DNA of 64,000 nt. Source: Erythrobacter sp. QSSC1-22B (GTDB lineage: Bacteria; Pseudomonadota; Alphaproteobacteria; Sphingomonadales; Sphingomonadaceae). The translations under genes and the position numbers were made by a program. Of the stretch, positions 11,771-41,523 are shown piece by piece. Every line of letters begins with the position of its first letter. Position 1 is the first letter of the stretch. The stretch covers positions 1-64,000 of the forward strand of contig NZ_LZRP01000011.1 of the NCBI RefSeq assembly GCF_001678665.1. The letters run 5' to 3'. The notes under the pieces are model-generated. The model was not told where the DNA came from and made no database searches. It worked only from the letters and a program-made list of their open reading frames with translations.

Positions 11771-11779
11771 TGGAAACCT

Positions 11780-23968: not shown

Positions 23969-24064
23969 GGCATTGGTCCCTCAAACAAGCATCCGGCGCG
24001 GGGGCGCACTGGATTGGCCGACGCAAGGACACCGTGGAAATCGGACGTCCTGCTCAACCCCAAG

Positions 24065-24076
24065 TTGTCCGGACAA
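24065..24076. promoter_or_regulatory. Island operator 3, TTGTCCGGACAA
   Basis: A perfect copy with ATTT on the right, in the divergent gap between the TonB receptor operon (-) and the small membrane protein gene (+). The distances are 96 bp to the receptor ATG and 99 bp to the 24176 ATG. Confidence 0.8.
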
Positions 24077-24175
24077 ATTTGCTTTTGTCAAGTTATCCGC
24101 TATCGCGAGCTCGCTGTTGAACGATTATGGCTGCCCGATGCGGCCTTCGCGTAACAATCTGAGGAGCCGTGCTCG

Positions 24176-24847: not shown

Positions 24848-24904
24848 CCGTAACTGCGACCCAAACGCCATAAGCCTGAAGAGAGAATTGGAGCGACCGA
24901 AAAT

Positions 24905-24916
24905 TTGTCTGGACAA
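24905..24916. promoter_or_regulatory. Island operator 4, TTGTCTGGACAA
   Basis: An 11-of-12 palindrome inside a longer inverted repeat AATTTGTCTGGACAAATT (24902-24919). It lies 67 bp upstream of the second TonB receptor ATG. It differs from the other copies by one central base (T for C). Confidence 0.75.
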
Positions 24917-24983
24917 ATTCTACTGATGCAGTGATTTCTGGTCTTATCGGGAGGCGGCATGGTCCGCCATGGGGAGATTGATG

Positions 24984-28521: not shown

Positions 28522-28602
28522 AAACGTTTCTCCCTCGGTTTTCCGGTCCTGCGTCCCGCATACAATCTGGTGTGAACCTGCACTTACGGGTTGACTTTAG
28601 AT

Positions 28603-28614
28603 TTGTCCGGACAA
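28603..28614. promoter_or_regulatory. Island operator 5, TTGTCCGGACAA
   Basis: A perfect palindrome extended to 16 bp (ATTTGTCCGGACAAAT, 28601-28616). It lies between the DUF1838 gene (-) and the CitE-type lyase operon (+), 81 bp and 102 bp from the respective starts. Confidence 0.82.
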
Positions 28615-28716
28615 ATTGTGAAGCGCCATTTGCAAAGGTGCTCGTTCGGTCCCCATACGGACCCCCTACCGACCGACCCGGATTGGGTCTTCGACTGTCT
28701 AAGGAACTGTCCCTAC

Positions 28717-29565
28717 GTGTTTGCGAGCAACAGCCTCCTGTTCGTACCCGGATCGCGCGGCGACCGTTTCCAGAAGGCGGCGGCGGCGGGCGCGGGCGTG
28801 ACGGTCATCGATCTGGAGGATGCGGTCCCGGCGAAGAACAAGCTTGCAGCGCGAACGGCCGCGCTGGCCCATGTCGCCGACCGGGGCGGGTCGGGGTGGG
28901 CGATCCGGATCAATCCGGTGGCGACGGCCGCCGGCATTGCGGACTTGGCGGCGTTGGAGCATGTTTCCGCGCCAGAAATGCCGCAATTCCTGATGCTGCC
29001 GATGGTGGATAGCCCACGCGACTGCGCAATCGTGGCGCAGGTGCTCGGCGATCGCTGCCCGGAATTGATTCCCCTGATTGAAAGCCCATGCGCGCTGCGC
29101 CGTGCGCTGGACATCGCGAAGAGCGGCAATGTCGGGGCGGTGATGTTCGGCGGCGGAGATTTCGCAGCGGAGCTGGGAGTGAAGCTGGCGTGGACACCGC
29201 TGCTGGCCGCACGGCAGCAATTGATCCTCGCCTGCGCGGAAGCGACCGTACCCGCCATCGACGTGCCGTTCATCCACCTGGACGATGCGGACGCGCTGGG
29301 ACGGGAATGCGCTGCCTCGCGCGCGCTGGGTTTCAGAGCCAAGGCTGCGATCCACCCGCGCCAGATAGCTGCCATCGAAGCCGCCTTCGCACCTGGCCAG
29401 GACGAGGTGAACGAAGCCGCGGAGGCCCTGCGCGCCTATAATGATGCAGGCGGCGCAGCCATTGTCTACAAGGGCCGGATGCTCGACGCGCCCATCGTGA
29501 AGCAATACCGTGCCGTGATCGAGCGGAGCCGGACCAACCAGACCGAAAGACTAACCCATGCGTGA
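28717..29565 (+). CDS. HpcH/HpaI-CitE family CoA-thioester lyase
   Basis: A 282-residue CitE-like TIM-barrel lyase: SLLFVPGSRGDRF, VTVIDLEDAVP, IRINP, PLIESPCALRRALDIA and MFGGGDFAAELG, which carry the Mg-binding Glu/Asp and the CoA-phosphate Arg. Relatives cleave citramalyl-CoA, beta-methylmalyl-CoA or malyl-CoA to an acyl-CoA plus pyruvate or glyoxylate. I prefer GTG 28717, which matches the family N-terminus and has AAGGA at 28701. A longer frame would run through operator 5. With the following MaoC hydratase, acyl-CoA dehydrogenase and two CoA-transferases it forms a complete module for an alkylsuccinate-type acid. Confidence 0.88.
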   Translation: MFASNSLLFVPGSRGDRFQKAAAAGAGVTVIDLEDAVPAKNKLAARTAALAHVADRGGSGWAIRINPVATAAGIADLAALEHVSAPEMPQFLMLPMVDSPRDCAIVAQVLGDRCPELIPLIESPCALRRALDIAKSGNVGAVMFGGGDFAAELGVKLAWTPLLAARQQLILACAEATVPAIDVPFIHLDDADALGRECAASRALGFRAKAAIHPRQIAAIEAAFAPGQDEVNEAAEALRAYNDAGGAAIVYKGRMLDAPIVKQYRAVIERSRTNQTERLTHA

Positions 29566-30067
29566 TGGCGTCGTCGAAGTTTCCCCCGGTCGGTTCCGCG
29601 AGGTCCAGGGCCGCTATTTCGACGATTTCGTCGTCGGGCACGTCTATGAACACCGCCCCGGCCGCACCATCACCGATGCGGACAATGTGTGGTTCACCCT
29701 GCTGACCATGAACACCCACCCCGCCCATTTCGATTACGAGTTGTCAAAAAAAACCGAGTTCGGCAGACCGCTGGTGGTAAGCCCGCTCACCATCGCGCTG
29801 ATGACCGGAATGAGTGTGAGCGACACCAGCGGCAAGGCGATTGCCAATCTGGGATGGGACGAGGTGCGCATGGTGCATCCGCTGTTCGTGGGCGATACGA
29901 TCTATTGCGAAAGCGAGATTCTGGACAAGCGCGAAAGCAAAAGCCGCGAAGGGCAGGGCATCGTGACCTTCAAGACGACCGCTAAGAACCAGGACGGTGT
30001 GGTCGTCAGCCATTTCAAGCGATCGGTCCTGGTATGGAAACGCGGGCACGGCAATCTGGACGATTGA
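29558..30067 (+). CDS. MaoC-like (R)-specific enoyl-CoA hydratase
   Basis: A 169-residue hot-dog-fold hydratase. The start RYFDDFVVGHVYEHRPGRTI matches MaoC/mesaconyl-CoA or itaconyl-CoA hydratases, with the catalytic Asp/His region in DADNVWFTLLTMNTHPAHFD and the LVVSPLTIALMTGMS helix. GDTIYCESEILDKRESKS completes the domain. It should add water to a 2-methyl- or alkyl-branched enoyl-CoA, producing the 3-hydroxyacyl-CoA cleaved by the CitE-type enzyme. ATG 29558 overlaps the previous stop by 8 bp. A run of AAAAAAA at about 29748 is in frame and apparently harmless. Confidence 0.88.
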   Translation: MRDGVVEVSPGRFREVQGRYFDDFVVGHVYEHRPGRTITDADNVWFTLLTMNTHPAHFDYELSKKTEFGRPLVVSPLTIALMTGMSVSDTSGKAIANLGWDEVRMVHPLFVGDTIYCESEILDKRESKSREGQGIVTFKTTAKNQDGVVVSHFKRSVLVWKRGHGNLDD

Positions 30068-30135
30068 ACGCCCCTACATTCCCTCCAAACACGACTCGCA
30101 CGCAAAGCAGCCCGGACGCAAACCAGGAATGATAC

Positions 30136-31335
30136 ATGGCCACCGCAGCATCACTCGAAAGCCAGATCCGCACCATCGATCCAGACGAGGAACGCGCCTT
30201 GATGAACTCCATCGATCGCTGGCTGGAACGCGAGGTGATCCCAGTGGTGAAGCATCACGACCATGGTGATATCTGGCCTGAAGAGCTGGTCGGGCAGATG
30301 GCGGAGATGGGTCTGTTCGGCGCCACAATCGGGCAGGAATATGGCGGGCTGGGCCTACCGGCTACAACCTATGCCAATATCGTGGCGCAGATTTCCAGCC
30401 ACTGGATGGCGATTACTGGCATCTTCAATTCGCATCTGATCATGGCTGCGGCCGTCGAACGGTTCGGCACCGCGCAGCAGAAGGCGAAATGGCTGCCCAA
30501 GCTGGCCACGGGCGAACTGCGCGGCGGGCTGGCGCTGACCGAACCCAATGCCGGCACCGACCTGCAGGCAATCCGCACCGTCGCGCACCGGAACGATAAT
30601 GGCGATTATGTGCTGAACGGCACCAAGACCTGGATTTCCAACGCGGTCAACGGGCATGTCTTTGCCCTGATCGCAAAGACCGATCCCCATGCCGACCCGC
30701 GCTACAAGGGGATGAGTCTGTTCATCGCGGACAAGCGCGAGGGCGAGACATCGGGCCTCACCGTGGGCAAGCAGTTCGAGAAGCTGGGGTACAAGGCGAT
30801 CGACAGCGCGGAGCTGGTGATGGAGGATTACGTCTTGCCTGCCGACCAGCTGATCGGCGGCACGGAAGGGCAGGGTTTCTTTCAGGCCACCGGCGGATTG
30901 GAACTGGGCCGGATCAATGTCGCCGCTCGCGGGGTCGGCCTTGCCGAAGGGTCGTTGCGCCTCGCCACGCAATATGCGCAGCAACGCGAGACGATGGGCA
31001 AGCCGATCGCGCAGCACCAGGCAATCCAGCTGAAGATCGGCGAGATGGCCACACGCGCGCGCGCCGCCCGCCTGCTGACGATGGATGCGGCCATGGCTTA
31101 CGACAAGGGCGAGCGTTGCGACAAGGAAGCGGGAATGGCGAAATATTTCGCTTCCGAAGCGGCGGTGTCTAACAGCCAAGAGGCAATGCGCGTCTATGGC
31201 GGCTATTCCTATTCCAAGGAATACGACATCGAACGGTATTACCGCGATTCCATGCTGATGTGCATCGGCGAAGGGACCAACGAAATGCAGCGGATGATCA
31301 TCGCGCGCCAGCATTTCAAGGAGAATCCCGCCTGA
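30136..31335 (+). CDS. Acyl-CoA dehydrogenase
   Basis: A 399-residue acyl-CoA dehydrogenase with all three domains. The N-terminal helical part holds FGATIGQEYGGLGL, the middle strands LALTEPNAGTDLQAI and NGTKTWISNA bind FAD, and the C-terminal helices carry the catalytic-base loop MCIGEGTNEMQRMI. It should introduce a 2,3-double bond into an acyl-CoA. Located after the hydratase and before two CoA-transferases, a branched succinyl-CoA thioester (methylsuccinyl- or benzylsuccinyl-CoA-like) is the likely substrate, by analogy with BbsG and Mcd. AGGA precedes the ATG after a 68-bp spacer. Confidence 0.93.
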   Translation: MATAASLESQIRTIDPDEERALMNSIDRWLEREVIPVVKHHDHGDIWPEELVGQMAEMGLFGATIGQEYGGLGLPATTYANIVAQISSHWMAITGIFNSHLIMAAAVERFGTAQQKAKWLPKLATGELRGGLALTEPNAGTDLQAIRTVAHRNDNGDYVLNGTKTWISNAVNGHVFALIAKTDPHADPRYKGMSLFIADKREGETSGLTVGKQFEKLGYKAIDSAELVMEDYVLPADQLIGGTEGQGFFQATGGLELGRINVAARGVGLAEGSLRLATQYAQQRETMGKPIAQHQAIQLKIGEMATRARAARLLTMDAAMAYDKGERCDKEAGMAKYFASEAAVSNSQEAMRVYGGYSYSKEYDIERYYRDSMLMCIGEGTNEMQRMIIARQHFKENPA

Positions 31336-32540
31336 GCCTGCACCTGCCCCTCACCGGCTTCCGGATCCTGAGCGCGGAACAATACGGCGCCGGCCCTTAT
31401 GGCACGATGCACCTGGCGCAACTTGGCGCGGAGGTGATCAAGATCGAACCGCCGCGCGTGGATGGGAGAGGCGGGGGAGATACCGCGCGTGCCGTCGGTC
31501 CACACTTTCTGAGAGATCATGAAAGCCTTTATTTTCAGGCTTTCAATCTCAACAAGAAGTCCCTGACGCTGGATTTGCGCGAGCCGGCCGGCGCGGAGGT
31601 GTTCCGCAAACTCGTCGCCACCAGCCATGCCGTCGCCAACAACATGCGCGGCGATCTGCCGGAAAAACTGGGGCTGACCTATGCTGCGCTGAAAGACGTC
31701 AATCCGGCCATCGTCTGCGCGCATTTGTCCGCTTATGGCCGCGACAACGCCCGCGCGACATGGCCGGGCTATGATTACCTGATGCAGGCCGAGGCCGGCT
31801 ATTGCCAGATGACCGGCGAACCCGGCGGGGAACCGCAGCGCATGGGTCTGAGCATGGTGGATTTCATGACCGGGACGCTGATGTCGATCGGGCTTCTGGC
31901 CGCGTTGATGGATGCGCAGCGGACCGGCACAGGGCGCGATGTGGATACCGATCTGTTATCCGCGGCCGTGCACCAGACCAGCTATCCCGCGTTGTGGTAT
32001 CTCAACGAAGGCGATGAGACCCAGCGAACTGCGCGCAGCGCTCATCCCACCGCCACCCCCAGCCAGATGTTCCGCGCCGCCGATGGCTGGATATTCATGA
32101 TGTGCCAACTGCCCAAATTCTGGAACGTTCTGGTGGAACGGCTCGGGCGCGAGGATCTGCGGGATGATCCGCGGTTCGCCGACAACCCCGCCCGGCTGCG
32201 CCACCGTGCGGAACTGACCGGACTGCTCGATGCGCAATTCGTGCAACAGCCGATAGCGCACTGGCAAGAACTGCTGGCCGGGCACGTACCAGTAGCGCCG
32301 GTTTACGAGCTCGCGGACGCGATGGACAATCCATGGCTGGTGGAAACGGGGATGCTCGACAGCGTCGACCATCCGGATCGGGAGGACATGCAGGTTCTGG
32401 CCAGCCCCATCCGGCTGGACGGAAACCGTTTGCCGAACCGCGCGGCGCCACTGTTGGGGATCGACAGCGACCAATTGCTGCGCGAAATCGGGTACGATAC
32501 CGAAGCGATCGATACGCTGCGCGCAAAAGGCGTGGTCTGA
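31332..32540 (+). CDS. CaiB/BaiF CoA-transferase, probable CTG start
   Basis: A 402-residue class III CoA-transferase (LTGFRILSAEQYGAGPYGT, LGAEVIKIEPPRVDG, LNKKSLTLDLREPAG, MRGDLPEKLGLTY). The usual N-terminus lies only a few residues before LTGF. No ATG, GTG or TTG exists there, but a CTG at 31332 sits 8 nt after a strong AAGGAG and overlaps the preceding stop as CTGA. The next ATG (MHLAQLGAE) would delete the conserved first strand. The adjacent CaiB gene may encode a second subunit, as in the two-subunit benzylsuccinate CoA-transferase, or act on a different acid. Confidence 0.85.
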   Translation: MSLHLPLTGFRILSAEQYGAGPYGTMHLAQLGAEVIKIEPPRVDGRGGGDTARAVGPHFLRDHESLYFQAFNLNKKSLTLDLREPAGAEVFRKLVATSHAVANNMRGDLPEKLGLTYAALKDVNPAIVCAHLSAYGRDNARATWPGYDYLMQAEAGYCQMTGEPGGEPQRMGLSMVDFMTGTLMSIGLLAALMDAQRTGTGRDVDTDLLSAAVHQTSYPALWYLNEGDETQRTARSAHPTATPSQMFRAADGWIFMMCQLPKFWNVLVERLGREDLRDDPRFADNPARLRHRAELTGLLDAQFVQQPIAHWQELLAGHVPVAPVYELADAMDNPWLVETGMLDSVDHPDREDMQVLASPIRLDGNRLPNRAAPLLGIDSDQLLREIGYDTEAIDTLRAKGVV

Positions 32541-32543
32541 CCG

Positions 32544-33626
32544 ATGGGCAGACTGTCAGGCATCACGGTCATCGATCTGACGCAGTTCCTGCCCGGCCCG
32601 ATGATGACCGTAATGATGGCCGATCATGGTGCGCAGATCATCAAGATCGAGCCGCCGTCGGGCGACCCGGCACGCCGGCAGGCTCCTTTCGAAGGCGGTC
32701 ATTCGGTGTGGTTCGCCAACCTCAACCGCGGCAAGCAAAGCCGGGTCCTGGATCTGAAAACTGCCGACGGGCAGGCGGGTTTGCGCGGGCTTTGCCAGAA
32801 GGCGGATGTGTTCGTCGAGGGGTTCCGCCCCGGCGTGATGCAGCGTCTGGGGTTCGACTATGCTGCGGTGAAGGCGATCAATCCCGCGATCGTGTATTGC
32901 TCGATCTCCGCGTTCGGGCAGGATGGCATACTGGCTGATCATCCGGCACACGATATGGCGGTGCAAGCCCTGACGGGCTTTCTGGCTGTGAACGACGATC
33001 CGGCCGGCAACCCGGTGGTGCCCGGCGCTCCGTCTGCTGATATGGCCGCTGGGCTCACGGCCCTGTCGGCGGTGCTGATGGCACTGCTCGGGCGAGAGCG
33101 GTATGGGGAGGGTGCCTATATCGACTGCGCGATGTTCGACAGCCTGCTTCCATGGAGCGCCCATATCGCCGGGGCCGCCATCGCGGGGGGGGACGCTCCG
33201 CGCTCGTCTGAACAGCGGTCGTTGGGCGGGGCCGCGCTTTATCAGGTTTATCAGACCAGCGATGGCAAACACATTGCGCTGGGCGGCCGCGAAACCAAAT
33301 TTGCGCAAGCGCTGTTGACGGCCCTGGATCGCCCGGACCTGATGCCTCAGGCGGAAAATGAGGCAGGACAGCAGAACGAACTGATCGAATTTCTGCGCAC
33401 GACGTTTGTTCGGCGCAGCCGCGCCCGATGGATTGCGTGGTTCGCCGACAAGGATATCGCTTTCGCGCCGGTCCTGGATTTTCGCGAGGCGCTCGATTCA
33501 GCGCATATAGCCGAGCGCGGCCTGCTCGTCGAAGATGAATGGGGCGCACACCATATCGCCTCGCCGATCCGTTTCGCCGGGGAGTCTTGGCAGCCTGGGC
33601 CAGTTCCGGAGCTGGGGCAAGAATGA
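32544..33626 (+). CDS. CaiB/BaiF CoA-transferase or 2-methylacyl-CoA racemase-like
   Basis: A 360-residue class III CoA-transferase with MGRLSGITVIDLTQFLPGP, HGAQIIKIEPPSGDPARR, NLNRGKQSRVLDLK and VEGFRPGVMQRLGFDYA. It is somewhat shorter than its neighbour and closer to the alpha-methylacyl-CoA racemase branch, so it may epimerise a 2-alkyl-acyl-CoA rather than transfer CoA. It begins 3 bp after the previous gene and ends the plus operon, 20 bp from the convergent GntR gene. A heterodimer of the two CaiB proteins is also possible. Both options fit activation of an alkylsuccinate before dehydrogenation. Confidence 0.87.
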   Translation: MGRLSGITVIDLTQFLPGPMMTVMMADHGAQIIKIEPPSGDPARRQAPFEGGHSVWFANLNRGKQSRVLDLKTADGQAGLRGLCQKADVFVEGFRPGVMQRLGFDYAAVKAINPAIVYCSISAFGQDGILADHPAHDMAVQALTGFLAVNDDPAGNPVVPGAPSADMAAGLTALSAVLMALLGRERYGEGAYIDCAMFDSLLPWSAHIAGAAIAGGDAPRSSEQRSLGGAALYQVYQTSDGKHIALGGRETKFAQALLTALDRPDLMPQAENEAGQQNELIEFLRTTFVRRSRARWIAWFADKDIAFAPVLDFREALDSAHIAERGLLVEDEWGAHHIASPIRFAGESWQPGPVPELGQE

Positions 33627-33646: not shown

Positions 33647-34402
33647 TCAGATATCGAGATCGATATGCATCGCGTAGGCAAAGCGGTTGCCGGGGTGATG
33701 GCTGACCGAAATTTCGTACAAACGACCCTTGGGGTCAAGATAGCATCGGATGATCCGCAGGACCGGCGTGTCTTCCTCCACTTCCAGCGCGACCGCGGTT
33801 CCGGTATCCGCAGCGACAGCCTGGATATCCTGCGTCACCCGGCCGATGCTGACCCCGGCAAGGCGTTCGATCTGACTGAACAGCGTCCCCGCGGAAAGAT
33901 CGAGCTGATCGATCGCATGGCCCAGCCGTTCATGAAAATAGGCGCGGGTGGTGGCGATGGGCAATGCGTCCGACGGTCTGCGCCGGATACCGTAGAAACA
34001 GCGCCATTGCCCGCTCGCTTCGCCTTCGATCTGATCGCCCACGATGGCCGGCAATGGTCCGCATTCGTGTTCTGCATACACTACCGTACTGTCGCGCGCA
34101 TATTGCAGCAATTCGCCAACATTGCCCATCGGCTGATGCAGCGCACCGCCCCGCGCTGCGGCCGGCTGCACGGTGGTGCCGGAACCGCGCTTGCGGGCGA
34201 TCAGCCCCTCGGCCTGCAGCCGTTTCAACGCTTCGCGAATGGTGAATCGGCTAGCGTGGTAGGTTTCGCACAAGAGGGTTTCGGTGGGAAACTGCCTGCC
34301 GTCGGCATAATCGCCAGCCCCGATCGCATCGCGCAAATCCGCAGCTACCTGAAGATAACGGGGCATCTTGTCGGTCGCAGGAGGCAGGGCGGCATCAGCC
34401 AA
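33647..34402 (-). CDS. GntR-family regulator, HutC subfamily (UTRA domain)
   Basis: A 251-residue GntR regulator. The winged helix-turn-helix (PRYLQVAADLRDAIGAGDY, FPTETLLCETYHASRFTIRE, ALKRLQAEGLIARKRGSGT) spans about residues 14-80. The C-terminal UTRA effector domain contains LFSQIERLAGVSIGRVTQD and ends DPKGRLYEISVSHHPGNRF. UTRA domains bind small acids, amino acids or sugars, often pathway intermediates. It is the only substrate-type repressor inside the island and thus the best candidate for the TTGTCCGGACAA sites, though no copy lies in its own 41-bp upstream gap. The start could be TTG 34402 or ATG 34366. Confidence 0.88.
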   Translation of the reverse strand: MADAALPPATDKMPRYLQVAADLRDAIGAGDYADGRQFPTETLLCETYHASRFTIREALKRLQAEGLIARKRGSGTTVQPAAARGGALHQPMGNVGELLQYARDSTVVYAEHECGPLPAIVGDQIEGEASGQWRCFYGIRRRPSDALPIATTRAYFHERLGHAIDQLDLSAGTLFSQIERLAGVSIGRVTQDIQAVAADTGTAVALEVEEDTPVLRIIRCYLDPKGRLYEISVSHHPGNRFAYAMHIDLDI

Positions 34403-34443: not shown

Positions 34444-35667
34444 ATGAGCGATACCCTGCTTACGCAACTGGCAAACCGGCTTGCCCGGCCGGTGGAACCC
34501 GGCGTCCGGGACCGGGCGCGCCTGCATCTGCTGGATTGGCTTGCGTGCATTGCCGGTGCTCTGCGTACGGAGGCGGGGGCGCTCGGGCGTGCCATCTCGC
34601 CCACCGCGTGGGAAAAATCGACCTATCTGGGCAACGCGCTGGAAATGGACGATGTGCATCGCACGGCATTGCTCCACCCCGGTCCGGTCGTGTGGCCCAC
34701 GGCCCTGTCCTACCCATCCGCATCTTTGGCGGAGCGGCTGAACGCAGGCATTCGCGGATACGAGGCGATGATCGCGATCGGCGGCATGCTGGACGCGCAT
34801 CATTACGCGCATTGGCACCCTACTGGGACGATGGGCGGGTTCGGCGCTGCAGCCGCATTCGGTTCTCTGATCGGGTTCGGTCCGGTGCAATATGCGAATG
34901 CCCTGGCCAACGCCGGTTCGGTTGCCGGCGGTGTCTGGCATATGCGGCACGACGATGTGCTGACCAAGCAATGGCACGTTTATCACGCCGTTCGAACGGG
35001 ACGGGACGCAGTTTTGCATGTGCATTACGGCGCGACCGGACCCGCGGCCTTGTTGGAAGGCCCGCAAGGCGTGTTCGCGGCAATGGCGCGCCAACCGGGG
35101 CCGATGCCCCACGGGAAGGGCTGGTTGATACGCGAAGTCAGCCTGAAACCTTATGCCGCCTGCCGCCATACCCATCCCGCAATCGATGCCGCGATGGAAC
35201 TTCGTGCGGTGGGCAGATTGCAGGCTCCTTTCGAAGTGCAAACCTATGCGGACGCATTGGCGTTTTGCGACCGCCCCGATCCGGTCACGGAACTGGATGC
35301 GAAATTTTCGCTGCAGCACGCGGTGGCAATTGTGTCGGCTGGCAGACATGCAGAACCGTCCGATTTCAGCCTCGGTGCGATCGCCGAACTCGGCTCGCTG
35401 CGCTCACAGGTCACGGTATGCGAAGACCCCGCAATCACGGCGCGCTACCCCGCCCATTTCGGCGCTACGGTCAACGGGTTCGAACTGGTCGATGCGCGCG
35501 GCGATCCGGAACGGCCGATGTCGCGCGAGGACGTGATTACCAAGCTCCGATCGCTTTGCACATGGGGCGGTTTGTCGCCGGAGGAGCCGGACCGGGCGAT
35601 CGCATGCGTGCTCGAAGGCGACGACGCCGAAGCGATCGACCGGATGCTGCAGGATTGGCTGACATGA
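34444..35667 (+). CDS. MmgE/PrpD family protein (copy 1)
   Basis: A 407-residue MmgE/PrpD-family protein. It starts with a helical segment (LARPVEPGVRDRARLHLLDW), includes LGNALEMDDVHRTALLHPG and PTALSYPSASLAERL, and ends in the characteristic MmgE/PrpD C-terminal subdomain with GFELVDARGDPERPMSR. The family contains 2-methylcitrate dehydratase, cis-aconitate decarboxylase and iminodisuccinate epimerase, so tri- or dicarboxylic substrates are likely. The gene starts 41 bp from the divergent GntR start. The immediately following gene is a second member, suggesting a heteromer or successive steps. The active-site chemistry is not readable here. Confidence 0.85.
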   Translation: MSDTLLTQLANRLARPVEPGVRDRARLHLLDWLACIAGALRTEAGALGRAISPTAWEKSTYLGNALEMDDVHRTALLHPGPVVWPTALSYPSASLAERLNAGIRGYEAMIAIGGMLDAHHYAHWHPTGTMGGFGAAAAFGSLIGFGPVQYANALANAGSVAGGVWHMRHDDVLTKQWHVYHAVRTGRDAVLHVHYGATGPAALLEGPQGVFAAMARQPGPMPHGKGWLIREVSLKPYAACRHTHPAIDAAMELRAVGRLQAPFEVQTYADALAFCDRPDPVTELDAKFSLQHAVAIVSAGRHAEPSDFSLGAIAELGSLRSQVTVCEDPAITARYPAHFGATVNGFELVDARGDPERPMSREDVITKLRSLCTWGGLSPEEPDRAIACVLEGDDAEAIDRMLQDWLT

Positions 35668-36971
35668 GCGCGACGGCCGATCTCCTGCGCTTCGCAGCGT
35701 CCGATCATGCGCTGCCCGCCGATGTTCGTAGCGATGCGATCCGCCTGCTAGGCGACACGCTGGCCGTGGGCGCAGCGGCAGTCGGCGCGCCGGGGGAACG
35801 GGCTATCCTGGAAACAGCGCGCGGGTTCGGAAAGGGGGCCGATGCCCGCCTGATCGGGACGGCGGAACGCCTGCCCGCGCCGGGCGCAGCCTTCGTCAAC
35901 GGCTATCGCATCCATTGCCTCGAATGGGATGCTGTGCACGAACCCGCGGTGGTTCATGGGATGAGCGTGGTGACCGCTGCCCTGGCTGCAGCGATCGACC
36001 GGCGTATCGCCGCGGGGGGCGAATGCGATGCCGAAAAAGCGCTGGTAGCGCTGTCAATCGGGGTCGACATCGCGTCCGGCCTGGGTCTGTGCGCCGACAG
36101 CGCGATGCGGTTCTTCCGGCCTGCCGTTACCGGCGTGATGGGGGCGGCGGTGGCGGTCGCCCGGTTCGATGGCTTTTCCATCCCCGATGCGCTCGGGCTG
36201 GCCTATTCCTCCGCAGCCGGAACGATGCAGGCCCATGTGGAAGGCAGCGAAACCCTGCCGTTCCAGATTGCCAACGCCGCGCGAGCGGCGATCACGGCCA
36301 GCGATCTGGCCAGCGCCGGCTTCGGCGGACCGAGGGACGCCCTGGAGGGCCCGTTCGGATATCTGCAACTATTCGAAAGCGGCGATCTGCGGCGCTACAC
36401 CGAAAATTTAGGGAAGGTGTGGCGAATATCCGAAATCAGCGTGAAGCCGTTTCCTTCCGGTCGTGCCAGCCATGCCGCTCTCGGATTGCTGCAGCAGCTA
36501 TCGCTCACCCGCAAACAGGTCCGCGATCTGACGGACATCGAACTTGCTTGTCCACCGCTTATCCGCCGCCTAGTCGATCGGCGCTGGTCGCCGGAAATGA
36601 CGCCCGCCTGGGCCAGGCTGTGTATGCCCTATCTCGTCGCCTTGTTGCTGACGGATGGCCGGATCGATCCACGGCGCTTCACCGCGCAAGACTTCATCGA
36701 TCCCGCGCTGGCGCATATCGCGGCAAAAGTGCGCCTGACCGATGACGGCACTACCGACGGTAACGCCCTATTCCCTCAGGAGCTTACGCTGACAGTCGCG
36801 GATGGGCGGAGACAGAGCCGCGTCATAGCGCACACCTTGGGCAGCCCGGACAACCCACTCGACGCATCGCAGGCAGAAGCGAAACGCGTGCTCGCCAGAG
36901 ACTTGGCGCCCGCCGATGCCGACCCGCGCATATTCGACAACCCCTTGGCCTATTTCGTGGAGCCGCGATGA
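35664..36971 (+). CDS. MmgE/PrpD family protein (copy 2)
   Basis: A 435-residue paralogue. Recognisable are DAIRLLGDTLAVGAAAVGAP, FVNGYRIHCLEWDAVHEPAV (the family's asparagine/aspartate-His region), VHGMSVVTAALAAA and the later VEGSETLPFQIANAARAAI helix. The C-terminal domain has KPFPSGRASHAALGLL. It overlaps the previous gene by ATGA and the next gene (AMP-dependent ligase) by 4 bp. Sequence similarity to copy 1 is limited, so the two probably have distinct roles. The presence of methylcitrate-type enzymes suggests a branched dicarboxylate or tricarboxylate intermediate in this arm. Confidence 0.88.
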   Translation: MSATADLLRFAASDHALPADVRSDAIRLLGDTLAVGAAAVGAPGERAILETARGFGKGADARLIGTAERLPAPGAAFVNGYRIHCLEWDAVHEPAVVHGMSVVTAALAAAIDRRIAAGGECDAEKALVALSIGVDIASGLGLCADSAMRFFRPAVTGVMGAAVAVARFDGFSIPDALGLAYSSAAGTMQAHVEGSETLPFQIANAARAAITASDLASAGFGGPRDALEGPFGYLQLFESGDLRRYTENLGKVWRISEISVKPFPSGRASHAALGLLQQLSLTRKQVRDLTDIELACPPLIRRLVDRRWSPEMTPAWARLCMPYLVALLLTDGRIDPRRFTAQDFIDPALAHIAAKVRLTDDGTTDGNALFPQELTLTVADGRRQSRVIAHTLGSPDNPLDASQAEAKRVLARDLAPADADPRIFDNPLAYFVEPR

Positions 36972-38335
36972 CCTATCCGTCCTATTTCGAAGCCTTCGAT
37001 CCGGCGCAGATGCTCCAGGATTATCCGGTCGGCGCAAAGTTTCTGGATCGGTATCGCACCATGAGCCGGGATGAATTGTTCGGCTTGCAGGATCGGCAGT
37101 TTCGCAAGCTCATGCAGCGCGGTTGGCAATTGCCGTTCTATCGGCGCCTGTGGGGCGCTCAGGGGATCGAACCGGGCGATATTCAAGGCCTTGCCGATAT
37201 CGTCAAACTGCCGGTCTACGACAAAAGCGACCTGATGGCGTCGATTGCCGAACATCCGCCGTTCGGGGATTTTCACGGAATGGGGCCGGCGGCATCGCGA
37301 TCACCGATCGTGTTCCACACCACCAGCGGGACCACCGGGAAACCGCAGGTGCTGATGTTCGGACCCAAGGGCAGGGAAGTCGGCAATCTCCTGGTCGGCC
37401 GGATGTATCGCTGGATGGGCCTGCAATCCGATGACGTGGTGCAATCGGTCTATGGTCACGGTATGATCAACGGCGGCCATTATATCCGCGAGGCGGTGAC
37501 CAAGTTCACCAATTCGATATTCCTTTCCGCCGGAACCGGGATCGAAACCCGCAGCATCAGTCAGGTGCAGCTGATGGCGGACTTCGGCGTGACCTGCCTT
37601 GTCGGCTTCGTGGATTACGTGCGCAAGCTGGCCGCTACGGCAGAGACGGAGAAGCTGTTCGACCAGATAAATATTCGGATGATCATCGGCCACCTGGGAA
37701 CGGAGGATCGCGCCGGTACCGAAGCTGCCTGGCACGGCGCGAAGGCGTTTGACTGGTACGGCGTCGGCGACACCGGGTGCATTGCGGGTGAGGGGCCTGA
37801 ACGCGACGGGCTGTATGTCTGGGAGGATGCCCAATATCTGGAAATTCTTGGCGTCGATGACAGGGCGCCGGTCGAGTCGGGCGACACAGGCGATATGGTG
37901 GTCACATGCCTGTACAAGGACGATATCGCGCCCTGCATCCGTTTCAACACGCACGACATTACGCAGGAGATGGCGGGACGCGGCGACATCGCGTTCAAGC
38001 GGATCACCGGCTTCAAGGGCCGCAGCGACAATATGGTGAAGCTGCGCGGCATCAATGTGTTTCCCCATGCGATCGGCGCGATCATTGAAAACCGTGGCGA
38101 TCTAACCGGCGAATATGTCTGCCATCTAACACGCGATGCGGACCGGAAGGACACCATGCGGGTGACGCTCGAAAGCCGGGGCGGAACCGACGCGGCGGCG
38201 CTTGCCGATCTGTTGAGACGGGGGCTGGGCGTCGAAGTGGATGTGGAACTGGTCGAACCGGGCGGAACCGCTGCCGCGACGGAGATCGACCAGCGCCAGA
38301 AGCCGCTGCGCCTGATCGACGCCCGCAATGCGTGA
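36968..38335 (+). CDS. Phenylacetate-CoA-ligase-like AMP-forming enzyme
   Basis: A 455-residue adenylate-forming enzyme of the PaaK/phenylacetate-CoA ligase type. The P-loop-like motif HTTSGTTGKPQVLMF is at about residues 117-131, and the hinge/adenylation motifs YGVGDTGCIAGEGPE and ITGFKGRSDNMVKLRGINVF are intact. A small C-terminal domain follows. It should activate an aromatic or short-chain acid to its CoA thioester using ATP. The ATG overlaps the MmgE/PrpD stop, and its own stop overlaps the amidase start by 8 bp, showing a coupled operon. It is the only ATP-dependent ligase in the island, complementing three CoA-transferases. Confidence 0.88.
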   Translation: MTYPSYFEAFDPAQMLQDYPVGAKFLDRYRTMSRDELFGLQDRQFRKLMQRGWQLPFYRRLWGAQGIEPGDIQGLADIVKLPVYDKSDLMASIAEHPPFGDFHGMGPAASRSPIVFHTTSGTTGKPQVLMFGPKGREVGNLLVGRMYRWMGLQSDDVVQSVYGHGMINGGHYIREAVTKFTNSIFLSAGTGIETRSISQVQLMADFGVTCLVGFVDYVRKLAATAETEKLFDQINIRMIIGHLGTEDRAGTEAAWHGAKAFDWYGVGDTGCIAGEGPERDGLYVWEDAQYLEILGVDDRAPVESGDTGDMVVTCLYKDDIAPCIRFNTHDITQEMAGRGDIAFKRITGFKGRSDNMVKLRGINVFPHAIGAIIENRGDLTGEYVCHLTRDADRKDTMRVTLESRGGTDAAALADLLRRGLGVEVDVELVEPGGTAAATEIDQRQKPLRLIDARNA

Positions 38336-39503
38336 CATGGTGGACTTGGCCGATCTGAAACGGCGCAATACGCCGTTCAATGCGTTCGTCGATTTCGACG
38401 AACGGGCGCAGGGCGGCAAAGGTTCGCTGTCGGACCTGACCATGGGCGTGAAAGCAAATATCATGGTGCGGGGGCTTCCCTGGACCAGCGGGTTGGCCGC
38501 TTACCGCGATCGGGTGGCGGACCGCGATGCCCATGTAGTGACGTCGCTGCGCCGGGACGGTGCGGCGATCCTGGGCGCCCTCAACATGGAAGAGGCTGCC
38601 TTGGGGGCCAAGACCGACAATCCACATTACGGAGCGACGCAGAATCCGCATCGGATCGGACATTCTCCGGGTGGTTCGTCCGGCGGCAGCGGTGCTTCGG
38701 TGGCGGCGGGACTTTGCGATGCGGCCCTGGGAACGGACACGATGGGTTCGGTGCGCATTCCGGCGGCGCATTGCGGGGTGTACGGGTTCAAACCCGGCAC
38801 CGTCCGTGTCAGCCAGGACGGGCTGGACCCGGCGGATCCCTCGCTTGATGCGATCGGGGTGTTGGCACGGGACATCCTTACGCTGCAGCGAGTAACGCGC
38901 GTGATTTCGGATATCAGCAGCATGCCGGGCAGCGCCGAAACAGCGATCCTCGCGGATCATGGGGTGCCTCTCGATCCGGCGGTTGAGCGTGCCTTCGCCA
39001 GGGTGGTGGACATGCTGCCCGAGCAATGCGCGACCGTCCGGCTCTATCTTCCGCTTTCCCGCATTCGTTTCGCGGGGTTCCGGCAGGTGTCCCAATCGCT
39101 CTACACCCATTTACAAGACGTCGGCGAATTGAGCAAAAGACTGCGCCGATTGCTGACCTTCGGCCCCGATCGGTCCGTCCAGGAGGTTGGCGCCGATCGC
39201 GCCATACTCGGCGCGACACGCGATCGCGTGTCGAGCATTGTCGATAGGCACGGATTCCTGATCATGCCCACCGTTCCCAATCCGCCATTCGCGCACGATA
39301 CCCGCGAACCGGTCGAACAGGCTGATTTCACCTGCCTTGCCAATATCGCCGGACTGCCGGCGATCAGCGTGCCGATGGGCTGGACCGACGGTGGTCTGCC
39401 GCTTGGTGTTCAAGTCGTCGGGCGGATAGGGGCCGAAGCAGAGCTGTTCGCGTTCGCTCGCGATCTCGATGCGAAACTCGGCGCATATCGCGCACCATAC
39501 TGA
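38328..39503 (+). CDS. Amidase-signature enzyme
   Basis: A 391-residue amidase-signature hydrolase. The catalytic Lys is in LTMGVKANI. The cis-Ser lies in SPGGSSGGSGASVAAGL, and the nucleophile Ser is in ALGTDTMGSVRIPA, where a Gly usually precedes the GS pair and a Met occurs instead. The family hydrolyses linear or cyclic amides. It may deaminate an amide released by ring opening, overlapping in role with the isochorismatase and nitrilase-like enzymes. ATG 38328 lies 8 bp inside the ligase gene; a second in-frame ATG is at 38337. It is shorter than most amidases (about 450 residues), with a compact middle. Confidence 0.87.
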   Translation: MRDMVDLADLKRRNTPFNAFVDFDERAQGGKGSLSDLTMGVKANIMVRGLPWTSGLAAYRDRVADRDAHVVTSLRRDGAAILGALNMEEAALGAKTDNPHYGATQNPHRIGHSPGGSSGGSGASVAAGLCDAALGTDTMGSVRIPAAHCGVYGFKPGTVRVSQDGLDPADPSLDAIGVLARDILTLQRVTRVISDISSMPGSAETAILADHGVPLDPAVERAFARVVDMLPEQCATVRLYLPLSRIRFAGFRQVSQSLYTHLQDVGELSKRLRRLLTFGPDRSVQEVGADRAILGATRDRVSSIVDRHGFLIMPTVPNPPFAHDTREPVEQADFTCLANIAGLPAISVPMGWTDGGLPLGVQVVGRIGAEAELFAFARDLDAKLGAYRAPY

Positions 39504-39515: not shown

Positions 39516-39824
39516 ATGCGTATCATCGTCCTGTTTGACCTGAAAGACGGCGTCAGCATTTCCGAATATGAAGACTGGGCCAGAACCCGCGACATTCCGG
39601 GCGTCAACGCTCTGGGCTCGGTTGCGAACTTCTCGATACACAAAGCGGTGGGCGTGTTCGGCGACGACGCCGCGAGCCCGCCCTATCAGTATTTCGAGAT
39701 CATCGACATCGATGCGATGGACGGGTTCGTCGCGGATATCTCGACCGAGGAATTTCAAGCTGCCGCCGCACCGTTTCAGGAATATGCCGCGGACCCCGTG
39801 TTCGTTCTGACGGAAGACCTCTGA
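39516..39824 (+). CDS. RedY/HapK-like alpha-beta barrel protein
   Basis: A 102-residue protein resembling the REDY-like HapK family: MRIIVLFDLKDGVSISEYED, a WARTRDIPGVNALGSVANFS region and YFEIIDIDAMDGFVADI, ending in a helix (EEFQAAAAPFQ) and a short strand. Members are dimeric ferredoxin-like barrels known from prodigiosin-type pathways, where they are thought to bind or condense pyrrole intermediates. AAGGAGAGG precedes the ATG. The role here is unknown, but it may be a stabilising, isomerising or decarboxylating partner of the following dehydrogenase. Confidence 0.75.
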   Translation: MRIIVLFDLKDGVSISEYEDWARTRDIPGVNALGSVANFSIHKAVGVFGDDAASPPYQYFEIIDIDAMDGFVADISTEEFQAAAAPFQEYAADPVFVLTEDL

Positions 39825-40639
39825 TGGCCGGAACGGCGCAAGGGCGGTTCGCCGGCAAGACGGTGGTCGTCACCGGTTCGGGTAAGGACCGGGGGCTGGG
39901 CCAGGGCATTTTGCAGGCGTTTGCCGATGAGGGCGCCCATTGCGTCGTGTCCGACGTGACCATCGATGCGGCGGCCGAGGCGGTCGCCGCGGAACTGCGC
40001 GAACGCGGCGCCGAGGTGGCAACCATAGCGTGCGACGTGTCAGATGCCGGAGATTGCCGCGCGCTGGTCGCCCAGGCGGCCGAGCGGTTCGGCGGCGTGG
40101 ACGTGTTCGTCAACAATGCCGGTATCGGCTTCAAGATGAAGCCTTTGCTCGAAGTCGATACGGTCGACGAATGGGACCAGGTGCTGGCGGTCAATCTGTC
40201 GGGCGCATTCTATTGCACGCAGGCGGCGGCACGGCAGATGGTGGAACAAAAGCGGGGCGGAAGGATCATCAATATCGCGAGCCAGGCCGCCAAGACCGGG
40301 TTTCCGCATCTGCCGGCCTATGTTTCGTCCAAGCATGGCATGATTGGGCTCACCCGGGCCAGTGCGGTTGAGCTGGGCACGCATGGCATAACCGTGAACG
40401 CGATCTGCCCCAACCACGTCACCACCGGGCTGGGCGCGCAGCAGAATGCGTATTTTTCCAAGCTGCTCGGTTTCGATAATGTGGACGCATACCTGGCAAG
40501 CATGAGCGCGAAGAACCCGATGGGCCGACCGGGCCTGCCGGCCGATACGGCTGCGGCCTGCCTCTGGCTGGCAAGCGCGGATGCGTTCTATGTGACGGGC
40601 GAGGCGCTGAACGTGAGCGGCGGGGAGGAAATGCACTGA
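39824..40639 (+). CDS. Short-chain dehydrogenase/reductase (SDR)
   Basis: A 271-residue classical SDR. NAD(P) binding is shown by VVVTGSGKDRGLGQGI, DVSDAGDCRALVA and FVNNAGIGF. The catalytic Ser is in INIASQAAKTG and the Tyr/Lys in YVSSKHG. The end is LNVSGGEEM. It should oxidise a hydroxyl or reduce a ketone of a pathway intermediate. The ATG overlaps the RedY-like stop, and its own stop overlaps the next gene start. Substrate cannot be assigned from motifs alone. Confidence 0.92.
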   Translation: MAGTAQGRFAGKTVVVTGSGKDRGLGQGILQAFADEGAHCVVSDVTIDAAAEAVAAELRERGAEVATIACDVSDAGDCRALVAQAAERFGGVDVFVNNAGIGFKMKPLLEVDTVDEWDQVLAVNLSGAFYCTQAAARQMVEQKRGGRIINIASQAAKTGFPHLPAYVSSKHGMIGLTRASAVELGTHGITVNAICPNHVTTGLGAQQNAYFSKLLGFDNVDAYLASMSAKNPMGRPGLPADTAAACLWLASADAFYVTGEALNVSGGEEMH

Positions 40640-41523
40640 TGACCCCCGGACCCATCCTGCCCGAGGAACGCATCGATTGGCCCGGCGGCGCGAAGCTGGC
40701 GCTGAGCGTGGTGGTCAATGTCGAGGAAGGCAGCGAGATGACCATCGCCCGGGGCGACCGGGGGATGGAGCCGGTGGACGAGCTGGGCGTGTTCGTAAAA
40801 TCGAACATTCGCAACTATTCCAACGAATCCAATTACCTCTATGGCATCAAGGCCGGCGCGCCGCGGATCGTGAAGCTGCTGCAACGCTACGATATGATGG
40901 CGAGCTGGACCGTGGCGGCGCTGGCGCTGGAAAACCATCCGGACATCGCCCGCGCTATCGTGGAGCTGCGCCACGAACCGGTCAGCCATGGCTGGCGTTG
41001 GGTCCACCAGTTCAAGATGGACGAGGACGCCGAGCGCGCATTCATCCGCAGGGCGGTCGCCAGTATCGAGAAAACCTGCGGGATGCGTCCCTATGGTTGG
41101 CTCAGCCGTTACCTGCTGACCGACAACACCCGGCGCCTGCTGTCGGAAGAGGGCTTCCTCTATCACATGGACGATTATTCGGGCGACATTCCGTTTTGGG
41201 ATCGGGAGACGATACCGGGAAAGCCGATGTGCATCGTGCCCTACCAGCTCGACAACAACGACATGAAGATGTGGACCGATCCCGCGCTGACGCCCGATCA
41301 ATGGCTCGGCTATGCCAAGGCGAATTTCGATCAGCTTTACCGGGAGGGGGAAGAGGGCAACCCCAAGATGATGAGCGTGGGCCTCCACCTGCGCATCGTC
41401 GGGCGTCCGGGACGAATCTGGGCGCTGGAGGAGTTCTTTCGGCATGTTCGGGCTCACGATGAAGTCTGGATCGCCACGCGCAGGCAGATTGCCGACCACT
41501 TCATGACGCAGCAGGCCGCGTGA
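40639..41523 (+). CDS. Polysaccharide-deacetylase-fold protein, allantoinase PuuE-like (copy 3)
   Basis: A 294-residue NodB-fold protein, the closest of the three island copies to allantoinase PuuE. Its His motif is PVSHGWRWVHQF, nearly the PuuE signature, with LSVVVNVEEGSE at the first motif and RPYGWLSRYLLTDNTRRLL in the middle. PuuE-type allantoinases are metal-independent cyclic amidohydrolases that open the hydantoin ring of allantoin. The gene is flanked by an SDR and an enoyl-CoA-hydratase-like gene, not purine genes, so another cyclic amide is expected. There is no signal peptide. Copies 1 and 2 lie in the operon at 11.8-13.6 kb. Confidence 0.87.
   Translation: MTPGPILPEERIDWPGGAKLALSVVVNVEEGSEMTIARGDRGMEPVDELGVFVKSNIRNYSNESNYLYGIKAGAPRIVKLLQRYDMMASWTVAALALENHPDIARAIVELRHEPVSHGWRWVHQFKMDEDAERAFIRRAVASIEKTCGMRPYGWLSRYLLTDNTRRLLSEEGFLYHMDDYSGDIPFWDRETIPGKPMCIVPYQLDNNDMKMWTDPALTPDQWLGYAKANFDQLYREGEEGNPKMMSVGLHLRIVGRPGRIWALEEFFRHVRAHDEVWIATRRQIADHFMTQQAA

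What the first reader, a model, noticed from the sequence alone, without database searches (positions are those of the whole stretch)
28717..33626. Five-gene alkylsuccinate beta-oxidation-like module
CitE-type lyase, MaoC hydratase, acyl-CoA dehydrogenase and two adjacent CaiB/BaiF proteins mirror the logic of bbsEFGH (benzylsuccinate) and of methylsuccinate/itaconate routes: CoA transfer, dehydrogenation, hydration, retro-aldol cleavage. The two CaiB genes may be a heterodimer, as in BbsEF, or a transferase plus racemase. This would be the saturated branch complementing the LeuCD branch of the same regulon.
Basis: partly seen in the sequence, partly recalled or inferred. Interest (0 to 1): 0.58.

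Follow-up and report, generated by a model that had tools for sequence, protein, structure and literature searches.

The report
Branched dicarboxylic acid breakdown gene set
Five adjacent bacterial genes most likely break down a branched succinate-like acid through coenzyme-A chemistry, as one arm of a large, shared-switch gene island that also carries ring-amide-opening enzymes; the recipe is a variant of known itaconate and methylsuccinate pathways, and the natural food molecule is unknown.

Summary
The five genes are real and exactly where stated: a RipC/CitE-type C-C lyase, a RipB/Ich-type MaoC hydratase, a short-chain acyl-CoA dehydrogenase and two CaiB/BaiF proteins. The closest described system is the pseudomonad itaconate/methylsuccinate cluster (PMC12290011), but this is a variant. 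Its two PrpD proteins are not of the methylsuccinate-isomerase clade, and its dehydrogenase lies outside the main clade from isomerase-bearing clusters (6 of 10 such rows). The second CaiB carries the His/Asp/Glu set of alpha-methylacyl-CoA racemases in 79 of 80 sequences (one gap), the first the transferase Tyr in 81 of 82. So the pair is probably transferase plus alpha-epimerase, not a BbsEF heterodimer, which points to an alpha-branched succinyl-CoA. The module is often linked to a PuuE-like ring amidohydrolase and an amidase. It shares a palindrome, TTGTCCGGACAA, with the LeuCD/HMGL operon; all 4 exact copies in the 3.34-Mb genome lie in this island. Most likely: the saturated branch of a cyclic-imide (or related ring-amide) catabolic island. 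The substrate is not shown.

The parts
28717..29565 (+). CCL: HpcH/HpaI (CitE/RipC-like) C-C lyase, proposed alkyl-citramalyl-CoA lyase
   Evidence: RipC_Ccl 211 bits (cut-off 375); structure 3qll (titled Citrate lyase; Y. pestis RipC, recalled) 1e-43 against malyl-CoA lyase 6e-22; AID.PF motif shared with 3qll
29558..30067 (+). ICH: RipB/Ich-like MaoC hydratase
   Evidence: RipB_Ich 223 bits (cut-off 340), MaoC and MC_hydratase Pfam
30136..31335 (+). ACD: acyl-CoA dehydrogenase, proposed alpha-branched succinyl-CoA dehydrogenase
   Evidence: Acyl-CoA_dh domains; Glu379 in IGEGTNE (catalytic position, recalled) invariant in 13 of 13; tree
31335..32540 (+). CaiB1: family III CoA-transferase, proposed succinyl-CoA:branched-succinate CoA-transferase
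   Evidence: CoA_transf_3 4e-110; nearest curated model succinyl-CoA:mesaconate CoA-transferase, below cut-off; transferase Tyr 81 of 82, Asp 82 of 82
32544..33626 (+). CaiB2: family III protein with racemase residue set, proposed alpha-epimerase
   Evidence: H136/D166/E250 line up with H126/D156/E241 of alpha-methylacyl-CoA racemase; 80, 80 and 79 of 80; model pLDDT 94.8
28601..28616 (.). palindromic operator ATTTGTCCGGACAAAT, with TTGACT at 28591-28596 in front
10876..10891 (.). operator copy between the LeuCD operon (abH) and the ISO-PDA1-PDA2 operon
   Evidence: present in 7 of 7 relatives where that gap was fetched
24063..24078 (.). operator copy between TBDR1 (TonB-receptor-like, labelled by eye) and orf24
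24902..24919 (.). operator variant (one change) before TonB receptor 2
   Evidence: receptor by Pfam
1831..1846 (.). operator copy before the methyltransferase gene
   Evidence: methyltransferase by Pfam
33647..34402 (-). GntR (HutC/PhnF type) regulator, candidate repressor
   Evidence: NCBIfam, below cut-offs; linkage in relatives
34444..35667 (+). PrpD1, MmgE/PrpD family (not in the methylsuccinate-isomerase clade)
35664..36971 (+). PrpD2, MmgE/PrpD family (second clade)
36968..38335 (+). PaaK-like CoA ligase
   Evidence: PaaK NCBIfam 159 bits, below cut-off; PDB 4r1l 3e-40
38337..39503 (+). amidase, proposed half-amidase
   Evidence: Amidase 4e-73
39516..40639 (+). HapK-like small protein and SDR dehydrogenase
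   Evidence: next to PDA3 in many relatives
40639..41523 (+). PDA3: PuuE-like ring amidohydrolase, proposed cyclic imidase
   Evidence: PuuE allantoinase structure 4e-66, PuuE model 257 bits below cut-off 425
4785..8933 (-). parallel branch: CaiB0 (4785-5984), HMG-CoA-lyase-like (5981-6907), LeuD (6940-7572), LeuC (7569-8933)
   Evidence: one of three aconitase-family genes in the genome, below the leuC equivalog cut-off
10957..13605 (+). isochorismatase-type amidohydrolase (ISO) and two PuuE-like proteins (PDA1, PDA2)

Best explanation
The five genes encode the CoA-dependent cleavage arm for an alpha-branched (2,3-disubstituted) succinate. CaiB1 moves CoA from succinyl-CoA to the diacid, on the carboxyl away from the carbon that will carry the hydroxyl. 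CaiB2 inverts the alpha carbon so that the usable stereoisomer is formed. ACD makes the alpha,beta-unsaturated (mesaconyl-type) thioester. ICH adds water to give an alkyl-citramalyl-CoA. CCL cleaves it to pyruvate (or another 2-oxo acid) and an acyl-CoA. It works inside a roughly 42-kb island, held under one palindromic operator and probably the GntR protein, in which PuuE-like hydrolases and amidases open a ring amide, most likely a cyclic imide. LeuCD-CaiB0-HMGL handles the unsaturated (dialkylmaleate-type) acid and this module the saturated one. Shown: families, residue sets, conserved linkage, shared operator. Inferred: every substrate, the order of steps, the imide, the repressor.
For: Families. 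Racemase residue set in CaiB2 only; a racemase is of no use on methylsuccinyl-C4-CoA, whose alpha carbon is bare (inference). CCL is nearer 3qll (RipC, recalled) than malyl-CoA lyases. Of 48 ACD loci with at least 6 kb on both sides (of 80 kept by a capped scan), 25 carry PDA3; island-type PrpD is present in 23 of 25 against 1 of 23 without PDA3, PaaK in 22 of 25 against 1 of 23, amidase in 21 of 25 against 1 of 23 (identity thresholds set by me). Converse test: 12 of 21 PDA3 orthologues have this ACD nearby against 0 of 12 more distant PuuE-like genes. Parts of both branches lie together in L213 and L241. One operator for both branches: 4 of 4 exact genome copies lie in the island; 51 copies in 760 kb from 16 relatives against at most 1 for each of 59 permuted palindromes.
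Against: No substrate or activity was tested. CaiB2 is closer overall to CoA-transferases (287 bits; Z 37.5, rmsd 1.8 over 356) than to racemases (228 bits; Z 34.8, rmsd 2.2 over 344). CaiB2 occurs in 19 of 23 loci without PDA3 and in 2 of 7 loci with an isomerase-type PrpD, so it does not by itself imply an imide. One isomerase-type ACD (L209) falls in the same 45-row group as the window ACD. One genome has only CCL-ICH-CaiB2, with neither ACD nor CaiB1 nearby. 9 of the 21 PDA3 orthologues lack this ACD nearby. That PuuE-like proteins open imides here is inference; none scores as PuuE itself. The loci are not independent: near-copies, and at least two places lie on contigs already seen. With one mismatch allowed, the palindrome has 9 sites in the genome against 5 for its reversed control; the case rests on exact copies and their position.
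Confidence: 0.48

Rival explanations
1. It is simply the known itaconate/methylsuccinate degradation cluster with methylsuccinate or itaconate as substrate; the second CaiB is an accessory transferase.
For: Same lyase, hydratase, dehydrogenase and CaiB families as ccl, ich, mcd and ict. CaiB1 is 52% and ACD 59% identical to the proteins of a cluster in Caballeronia with ICH, PrpD, ACD, CaiB1 and CCL homologues. A minimal CCL-ICH-CaiB2 operon exists. Two loci with an isomerase-type PrpD also hold CaiB2 (L183, L188), and the isomerase-type L209 ACD falls in the 45-row group of the window ACD.
Against: Island PrpD1 and PrpD2 are 27% and 25% identical to the isomerase-type PrpD of that cluster and lie in separate groups of an unsupported quick tree. 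6 of 10 ACD rows from isomerase-type clusters form a group (99/89, with 1 other row) without the window ACD. CCL and ICH score 211 and 223 bits against cut-offs of 375 and 340. Linkage to a ring amidohydrolase and amidase.
Confidence: 0.24
2. CoA is placed on the carboxyl next to the methyl branch; CaiB2 racemises methylsuccinyl-C1-CoA, ACD and ICH give beta-methylmalyl-CoA, and CCL releases glyoxylate and propionyl-CoA, as at the end of the ethylmalonyl-CoA pathway.
For: The alpha carbon would then be branched without a second substituent, which explains the racemase residue set.
Against: CCL is closer to 3qll (RipC, recalled; 1e-43) than to malyl/beta-methylmalyl-CoA lyases (6e-22 and 9e-20), and ICH is closer to the RipB model (223 bits) than to 2-methylfumaryl-CoA hydratase (72 bits).
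Confidence: 0.12
3. CaiB1 and CaiB2 form one BbsEF-like heterodimeric CoA-transferase for a bulky succinate.
For: Adjacent genes; BbsEF subunits are among the matches of both; a shared family III fold with BbsEF (Z 34.7).
Against: Both keep the catalytic-position Asp (82 of 82 and 80 of 80), and CaiB2 differs from CaiB1 at the racemase positions. CaiB2 occurs without CaiB1 nearby, and a 78% identical paralogue sits beside ACD-, crotonase- and (by eye) thiolase-like genes without a CaiB1. CoA-transferases other than BbsEF score far higher for both.
Confidence: 0.07
4. The operon serves ordinary short-chain acyl-CoA oxidation and its place in the island is incidental.
For: The ACD matches many short-chain dehydrogenases.
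Against: Conserved order, shared operator and recurrent co-occurrence.
Confidence: 0.04

Closest known systems
Itaconate/methylsuccinate cluster of Cupriavidus necator and Pseudomonas aeruginosa PA0878-PA0883 (PMC12290011, parts 1-3 of 9 read; PMC9875883, outline and abstract seen)
   Same: Lyase, MaoC hydratase, acyl-CoA dehydrogenase, CaiB CoA-transferase and an MmgE/PrpD gene close together; same chemistry in outline.
   Different: Second CaiB with racemase residues; two PrpD proteins of other groups; ACD outside the main clade; AID.P motif in CCL where three isomerase-type clusters (L118, L130, L131) have P.DGV (L128 and L129, which have CaiB2, share P.DGV too); linked to ring amidohydrolases and amidases.
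Yersinia/Salmonella RipABC itaconate pathway
   Same: CCL and ICH have RipC and RipB as nearest curated models.
   Different: Scores below the equivalog cut-offs; in the genes scanned no RipA-type (acetyl-CoA hydrolase/transferase) gene, CaiB proteins instead.
Benzylsuccinate beta-oxidation bbsEFGH
   Same: Two adjacent CaiB genes and an acyl-CoA dehydrogenase; dicarboxylate CoA-transfer logic.
   Different: Bbs uses a crotonase hydratase and thiolysis (recalled); here MaoC hydratase and a retro-aldol lyase; CaiB2 is racemase-like.
Alpha-methylacyl-CoA racemase (AMACR/MCR)
   Same: CaiB2 has the H126/D156/E241 counterparts and similar length (360 aa).
   Different: Overall sequence and model are somewhat nearer CoA-transferases.
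Dimethylmaleate hydratase plus 2,3-dimethylmalate lyase (recalled)
   Same: The parallel LeuCD branch; two plasmid clusters add an isocitrate-lyase-family protein nearest methylisocitrate lyase, below its cut-off.
   Different: Here the cleavage enzyme next to LeuCD is HMG-CoA-lyase-like with a CaiB protein.

Membership tests
Methylsuccinate/itaconate cluster (ich-mcd-mmgE-ict-ccl) | Homologues of lyase, hydratase, dehydrogenase and CaiB side by side | tested here: met
Methylsuccinate/itaconate cluster (ich-mcd-mmgE-ict-ccl) | MmgE/PrpD gene of the (S)-(R)-methylsuccinate isomerase clade | tested here: not met
   PrpD1 24-29% and PrpD2 25-29% to 8 isomerase-type PrpDs, separate groups in a quick tree printed without support values. 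The references are clusters by gene content, not the assayed proteins.
Methylsuccinate/itaconate cluster (ich-mcd-mmgE-ict-ccl) | Dehydrogenase in the clade of dehydrogenases from isomerase-bearing clusters | tested here: not met
   Group of 7 rows (6 from such clusters), support 99/89, excludes the window ACD; 4 other such rows lie elsewhere, one (L209) in the 45-row group that holds the window ACD; same caveat on references.
Methylsuccinate/itaconate cluster (ich-mcd-mmgE-ict-ccl) | Activity on methylsuccinate or itaconate | not testable with these tools
   needs assay
RipC/Ccl and RipB/Ich equivalogs (NCBIfam) | Score above the curated cut-off | tested here: not met
   211.1 < 375 and 223 < 340. 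The RipC cut-off is narrow: 0 of 398 phylum genomes reach it.
BbsEF heterodimer | Both subunits closest to BbsE and BbsF | tested here: not met
   CaiB1 profile: 10uh 1e-93, BbsEF chain 7e-53; CaiB2 profile: 10uh 2e-84, BbsEF chains 1e-44 and 4e-35
BbsEF heterodimer | Heteromeric assembly | not tested
   no complex was predicted
Alpha-methylacyl-CoA racemase (CaiB2) | His/Asp/Glu residue set | tested here: met
   80, 80 and 79 of 80 (one gap) against 0 of 82 with His or Glu in CaiB1; reference racemase checked
Alpha-methylacyl-CoA racemase (CaiB2) | Closer overall to racemases than to transferases | tested here: not met
   profile 287 against 228 bits; Z 37.5 against 34.8; Foldseek top ranks are SUGCT and YfdE, racemase from rank 8
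Family III CoA-transferase (CaiB1) | CoA_transf_3 domain with the acyl-accepting Asp | tested here: met
   Asp 82 of 82
PuuE allantoinase (PDA3) | Score above the PuuE equivalog cut-off | tested here: not met
   257.2 < 424.6; a relative, not an allantoinase by this test
Leucine-pathway LeuC | Score above the leuC equivalog cut-off | tested here: not met
   498.4 < 560.25; two broader subfamily models (619 > 531, 534 > 510) are exceeded; genome has two other aconitase-family genes

The most novel reading that the evidence does not exclude
The island is a bacterial end-route for tetrapyrroles (chlorophyll, bilins). Pyrrole rings arrive as dialkylmaleimides and dihydro rings as dialkylsuccinimides; PuuE-like imidases and amidases open them. 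LeuCD-CaiB0-HMGL (unsaturated) and CaiB1-CaiB2-ACD-ICH-CCL (saturated) then both lead to alkyl-citramalyl-CoA, cleaved to pyruvate plus butyryl-CoA- or glutaryl-CoA-like acids.
Probability: 0.12. Interest if true: 0.88.

Novelty: new variant of a known kind. Interest (0 to 1): 0.58.

Why it matters
The isomerase and dehydrogenase of methylsuccinate breakdown were assayed as purified enzymes in a 2025 paper (PMC12290011). This module suggests a wider class: dialkyl-succinate breakdown with a CaiB-type epimerase, recurring across several proteobacterial families and tied by one operator to a parallel unsaturated branch. If right, it names the enzymes by which bacteria finish off ring amides or imides with two side chains, and it gives a compact set of proteins whose substrate can be found by assay. 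If the tetrapyrrole reading holds, it would address how the carbon of chlorophyll-type rings is returned to central metabolism.

Tried and rejected
BbsEF heterodimer: rejected on residue pattern and similarity. Fold comparison of the CaiB2 model to separate racemase from transferase: not decisive, both share the fold. RipC cut-off as a filter for true itaconate clusters: useless here, 0 of 398 genomes pass. PF00296 in the own genome led nowhere. Literature (open-licence PMC only, listings seen): no paper on bacterial imide-to-alkylsuccinate gene clusters, tetrapyrrole-catabolic clusters or this palindrome in bacteria was recognised (4 of 4 papers listed; 1 of 1; 15 of 25; 3 of 3; 1 of 1; 15 of 22; 0 found). 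pJE1 (8 of 8) gave nothing relevant; of the DUF1838 search only 12 of 5,631 papers were listed, none with that word. The riboflavin pathway (PMC12746152, outline and abstract) was considered and set aside: its P450, Rieske and xanthine-oxidase types are not among the domains found in the window proteins scanned. A promoter/terminator scan was of no help: 3 promoter-like sites against 1.6 in shuffles, 0 terminators against 4.7. Rows dropped: 32 of 80 ACD loci with under 6 kb on a side were left out of the counts quoted (counts on all 80 are printed there); 9 of the 80 loci gave no complete ACD ORF and are not in the tree (71 of 80); the isomerase-type PrpDs of L188 and L191 did not enter, which compared 8. 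After checking, I lowered the best explanation from 0.50 to 0.48 and raised the first rival from 0.22 to 0.24, because L209, L183 and L188 blur the line between isomerase-type clusters and this module.

Full report
WHAT IS THERE. The five ORFs are confirmed at the stated coordinates, head to tail on the + strand: CCL 28717-29565, ICH 29558-30067, ACD 30136-31335, CaiB1 31335-32540, CaiB2 32544-33626. Pfam and NCBIfam place them as HpcH/HpaI lyase (nearest curated model RipC_Ccl), MaoC hydratase (RipB_Ich), acyl-CoA dehydrogenase and two CoA_transf_3 proteins. None of the five reaches an NCBIfam cut-off. The genome is 3.34 Mb and belongs to a sphingomonad-like lineage: the nearest named relatives by ACD are Erythrobacter (87% and 85%).

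NEIGHBOURHOOD. Upstream on the minus strand lies abH-NTF2a-LeuC-LeuD-HMGL-CaiB0, divergent from ISO-PDA1-PDA2-ALDH; then come a nitrilase-family protein, an FAD oxidase, an MFS transporter, a TonB receptor (24981-27512 by Pfam; others labelled by eye) and DUF1838. Downstream are GntR (minus strand) and PrpD1-PrpD2-PaaK-amidase-HapK-SDR-PDA3-ECH-VOC. Names such as NTF2a are working labels. Of 16 relatives fetched (chosen from the 30 best ICH matches), 14 keep the five-gene module with neighbours and 2 do not (G100: CCL-ICH-CaiB2 only; G048: a remnant). The LeuCD-HMGL-CaiB0 block was seen in 6 of the 14 in the stretches fetched.

ONE REGULON. A perfect palindrome, TTGTCCGGACAA, lies before CCL (28603), between abH and ISO (10878), before orf24 (24065) and before the methyltransferase (1833), with a one-change copy before TonB receptor 2 (24905). 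The window has 6 sites at up to one mismatch; shuffles gave a mean of 0.13 and a largest count of 2. In the whole genome the exact palindrome occurs 4 times, all in this island. At up to one mismatch there are 9 sites, 6 of them in the window, against 5 for the reversed control pattern, so the loose count alone is no strong excess. In 760 kb from 16 relatives the exact palindrome occurs 51 times, against at most 1 for each of 59 permuted palindromes. It lies before CCL in 14 of 14 module-bearing genomes, at abH|ISO in 7 of 7 where that gap was fetched, and nowhere in the stretches of G100 and G048. Before CCL it follows a TTGACT hexamer (28591-28596), as in many orthologues, which suits repression. 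That GntR is the repressor is inference.

THE TWO CaiB PROTEINS. CaiB1 has Tyr (81 of 82; Phe once) and Asp (82 of 82) at the columns where E. coli FRC, YfdE and CaiB have Tyr and Asp, and never Glu at the third column. CaiB2 has His (80 of 80), Asp (80 of 80) and Glu (79 of 80, one gap) (homologues at 43% identity or more). The same three columns hold H, D and E in this genome's own racemase (L218; 351 bits to M. tuberculosis MCR; alignments). PDB titles list H126A, D156A and E241A mutants of that racemase. Against this, overall similarity favours transferases: profile 287 bits for 10uh against 228 and 212 for racemases, and model Z 37.5 (rmsd 1.8, 356 residues) for SUGCT against 34.8 (2.2, 344) for the racemase. 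The CaiB1 profile finds no racemase at 1e-50. Sequences in these counts are not independent; some genomes were fetched twice. I read CaiB2 as an epimerase, which requires a substituted carbon next to the thioester.

NOT SIMPLY METHYLSUCCINATE. In the assayed clusters the C4-CoA ester is used, with an MmgE/PrpD (S)-(R)-methylsuccinate isomerase and one itaconate CoA transferase (PMC12290011, parts 1-3 of 9 read). Here PrpD1 and PrpD2 are 24-29% and 25-29% identical to 8 isomerase-type PrpDs and group apart from them (quick tree, no support printed). In an ACD tree of 81 rows, 6 of the 10 dehydrogenases of isomerase-type clusters form, with 1 other row, a group with support 99/89 that excludes the window ACD. 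The other 4 (L183, L188, L191, L209) fall elsewhere, and L209 lies in the same 45-row group (99/98) as the window ACD, paired with L210. Two of the 4 (L183, L188) also have CaiB2. So the separation is real for the main group but not clean. The references are proxies by gene content, because the assayed sequences were not obtained.

LINK TO RING AMIDOHYDROLASES. The scan was capped (80 of 584 relatives kept). Of the 80 ACD loci, 48 have at least 6 kb on both sides. PDA3 is present in 25. With against without PDA3: island PrpD 23 of 25 against 1 of 23; PaaK 22 of 25 against 1 of 23; amidase 21 of 25 against 1 of 23; SDR and HapK each 19 of 25 against 0 of 23; CaiB2 24 of 25 against 19 of 23. The association is spread over the ACD tree (at least 8 changes forced by starred branches), though near-copies inflate the counts. 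Converse test: in 385 genomes of the class, 21 further places encode a PDA3 orthologue at about 56% identity or more, and 12 of the 21 have this ACD within the fetched stretch; of 12 more distant PuuE-like genes (43-49%), 0 do. Nine orthologues lack it; 5 of these 9 have PaaK and the amidase nearby. At least two of the 21 places lie on contigs that one search had already returned, so the two tests overlap. Plasmids carry ISO-PDA1-PDA2-LeuC-LeuD with CaiB0 and HMGL (Acidiphilium JZ-6 and Sphingomonas JE1), or ISO-PDA1-PDA2 with LeuCD; in JE1 and B. plantarii an isocitrate-lyase-family protein is added.

HOW IT PROBABLY WORKS. Ring hydrolysis (PDA proteins) and amide hydrolysis (amidase, ISO) release a substituted maleate or succinate. 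Maleates: LeuCD hydrates, CaiB0 activates, HMGL cleaves. Succinates: PrpD isomerisation, CaiB1 CoA transfer, CaiB2 alpha-epimerisation, ACD oxidation, ICH hydration, CCL cleavage to a 2-oxo acid and an acyl-CoA. On paper both branches meet at an alkyl-citramalyl-CoA. Families, residues, linkage and operator are shown; substrates and step order are inferred. The dialkyl imides known from chlorophyll breakdown (methyl ethyl maleimide, methyl vinyl maleimide, hematinic acid; PMC7318184, outline and passages seen) would fit but nothing here tests them.

VERDICT. Observation confirmed; interpretation partly supported; a new variant of the itaconate/methylsuccinate kind, embedded in a conserved single-operator island.

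Noticed in passing
window 1833, 10878, 24065, 28603 (exact); 24905 and 44818 (one mismatch): Perfect palindrome TTGTCCGGACAA marks island operons and has no exact copy elsewhere in the genome.
   Followed up: yes
L219 (G000:C1:788001-808000), 10635-11729: A second CaiB2 gene, 78% identical to CaiB2, stands near ACD- and crotonase-like genes and one that looks like a thiolase by its first residues, with no ICH or CCL match in the 20 kb.
   Followed up: partly
window 8946-9506 and 15047-15475: Two small proteins with similar HEG.WDG.Y starts and no Pfam family at 1e-5; both found in several relatives.
   Followed up: no
L121 (Acidiphilium multivorum plasmid, NZ_CP041720) 29939-36868: Beside the PDA-LeuCD module lies a second set: HMGL, CoA transferase, hydantoinase/oxoprolinase A and B, isochorismatase, possibly an ATP-driven lactam opener.
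   Followed up: no
L131 (Pseudosulfitobacter plasmid, NZ_CP022419) 8634-19824: A methylsuccinate-type gene set (by content) sits beside a cobalamin-dependent acyl-CoA mutase and MeaB.
   Followed up: no
window 7569-8933: LeuC here is one of three aconitase-family genes in the genome and scores below the leuC equivalog cut-off.
   Followed up: partly
window 27595-28521: DUF1838 protein, divergent from CCL across the shared operator; also near the module in Brevundimonas and Burkholderiales loci (L211, L212, L202).
   Followed up: no
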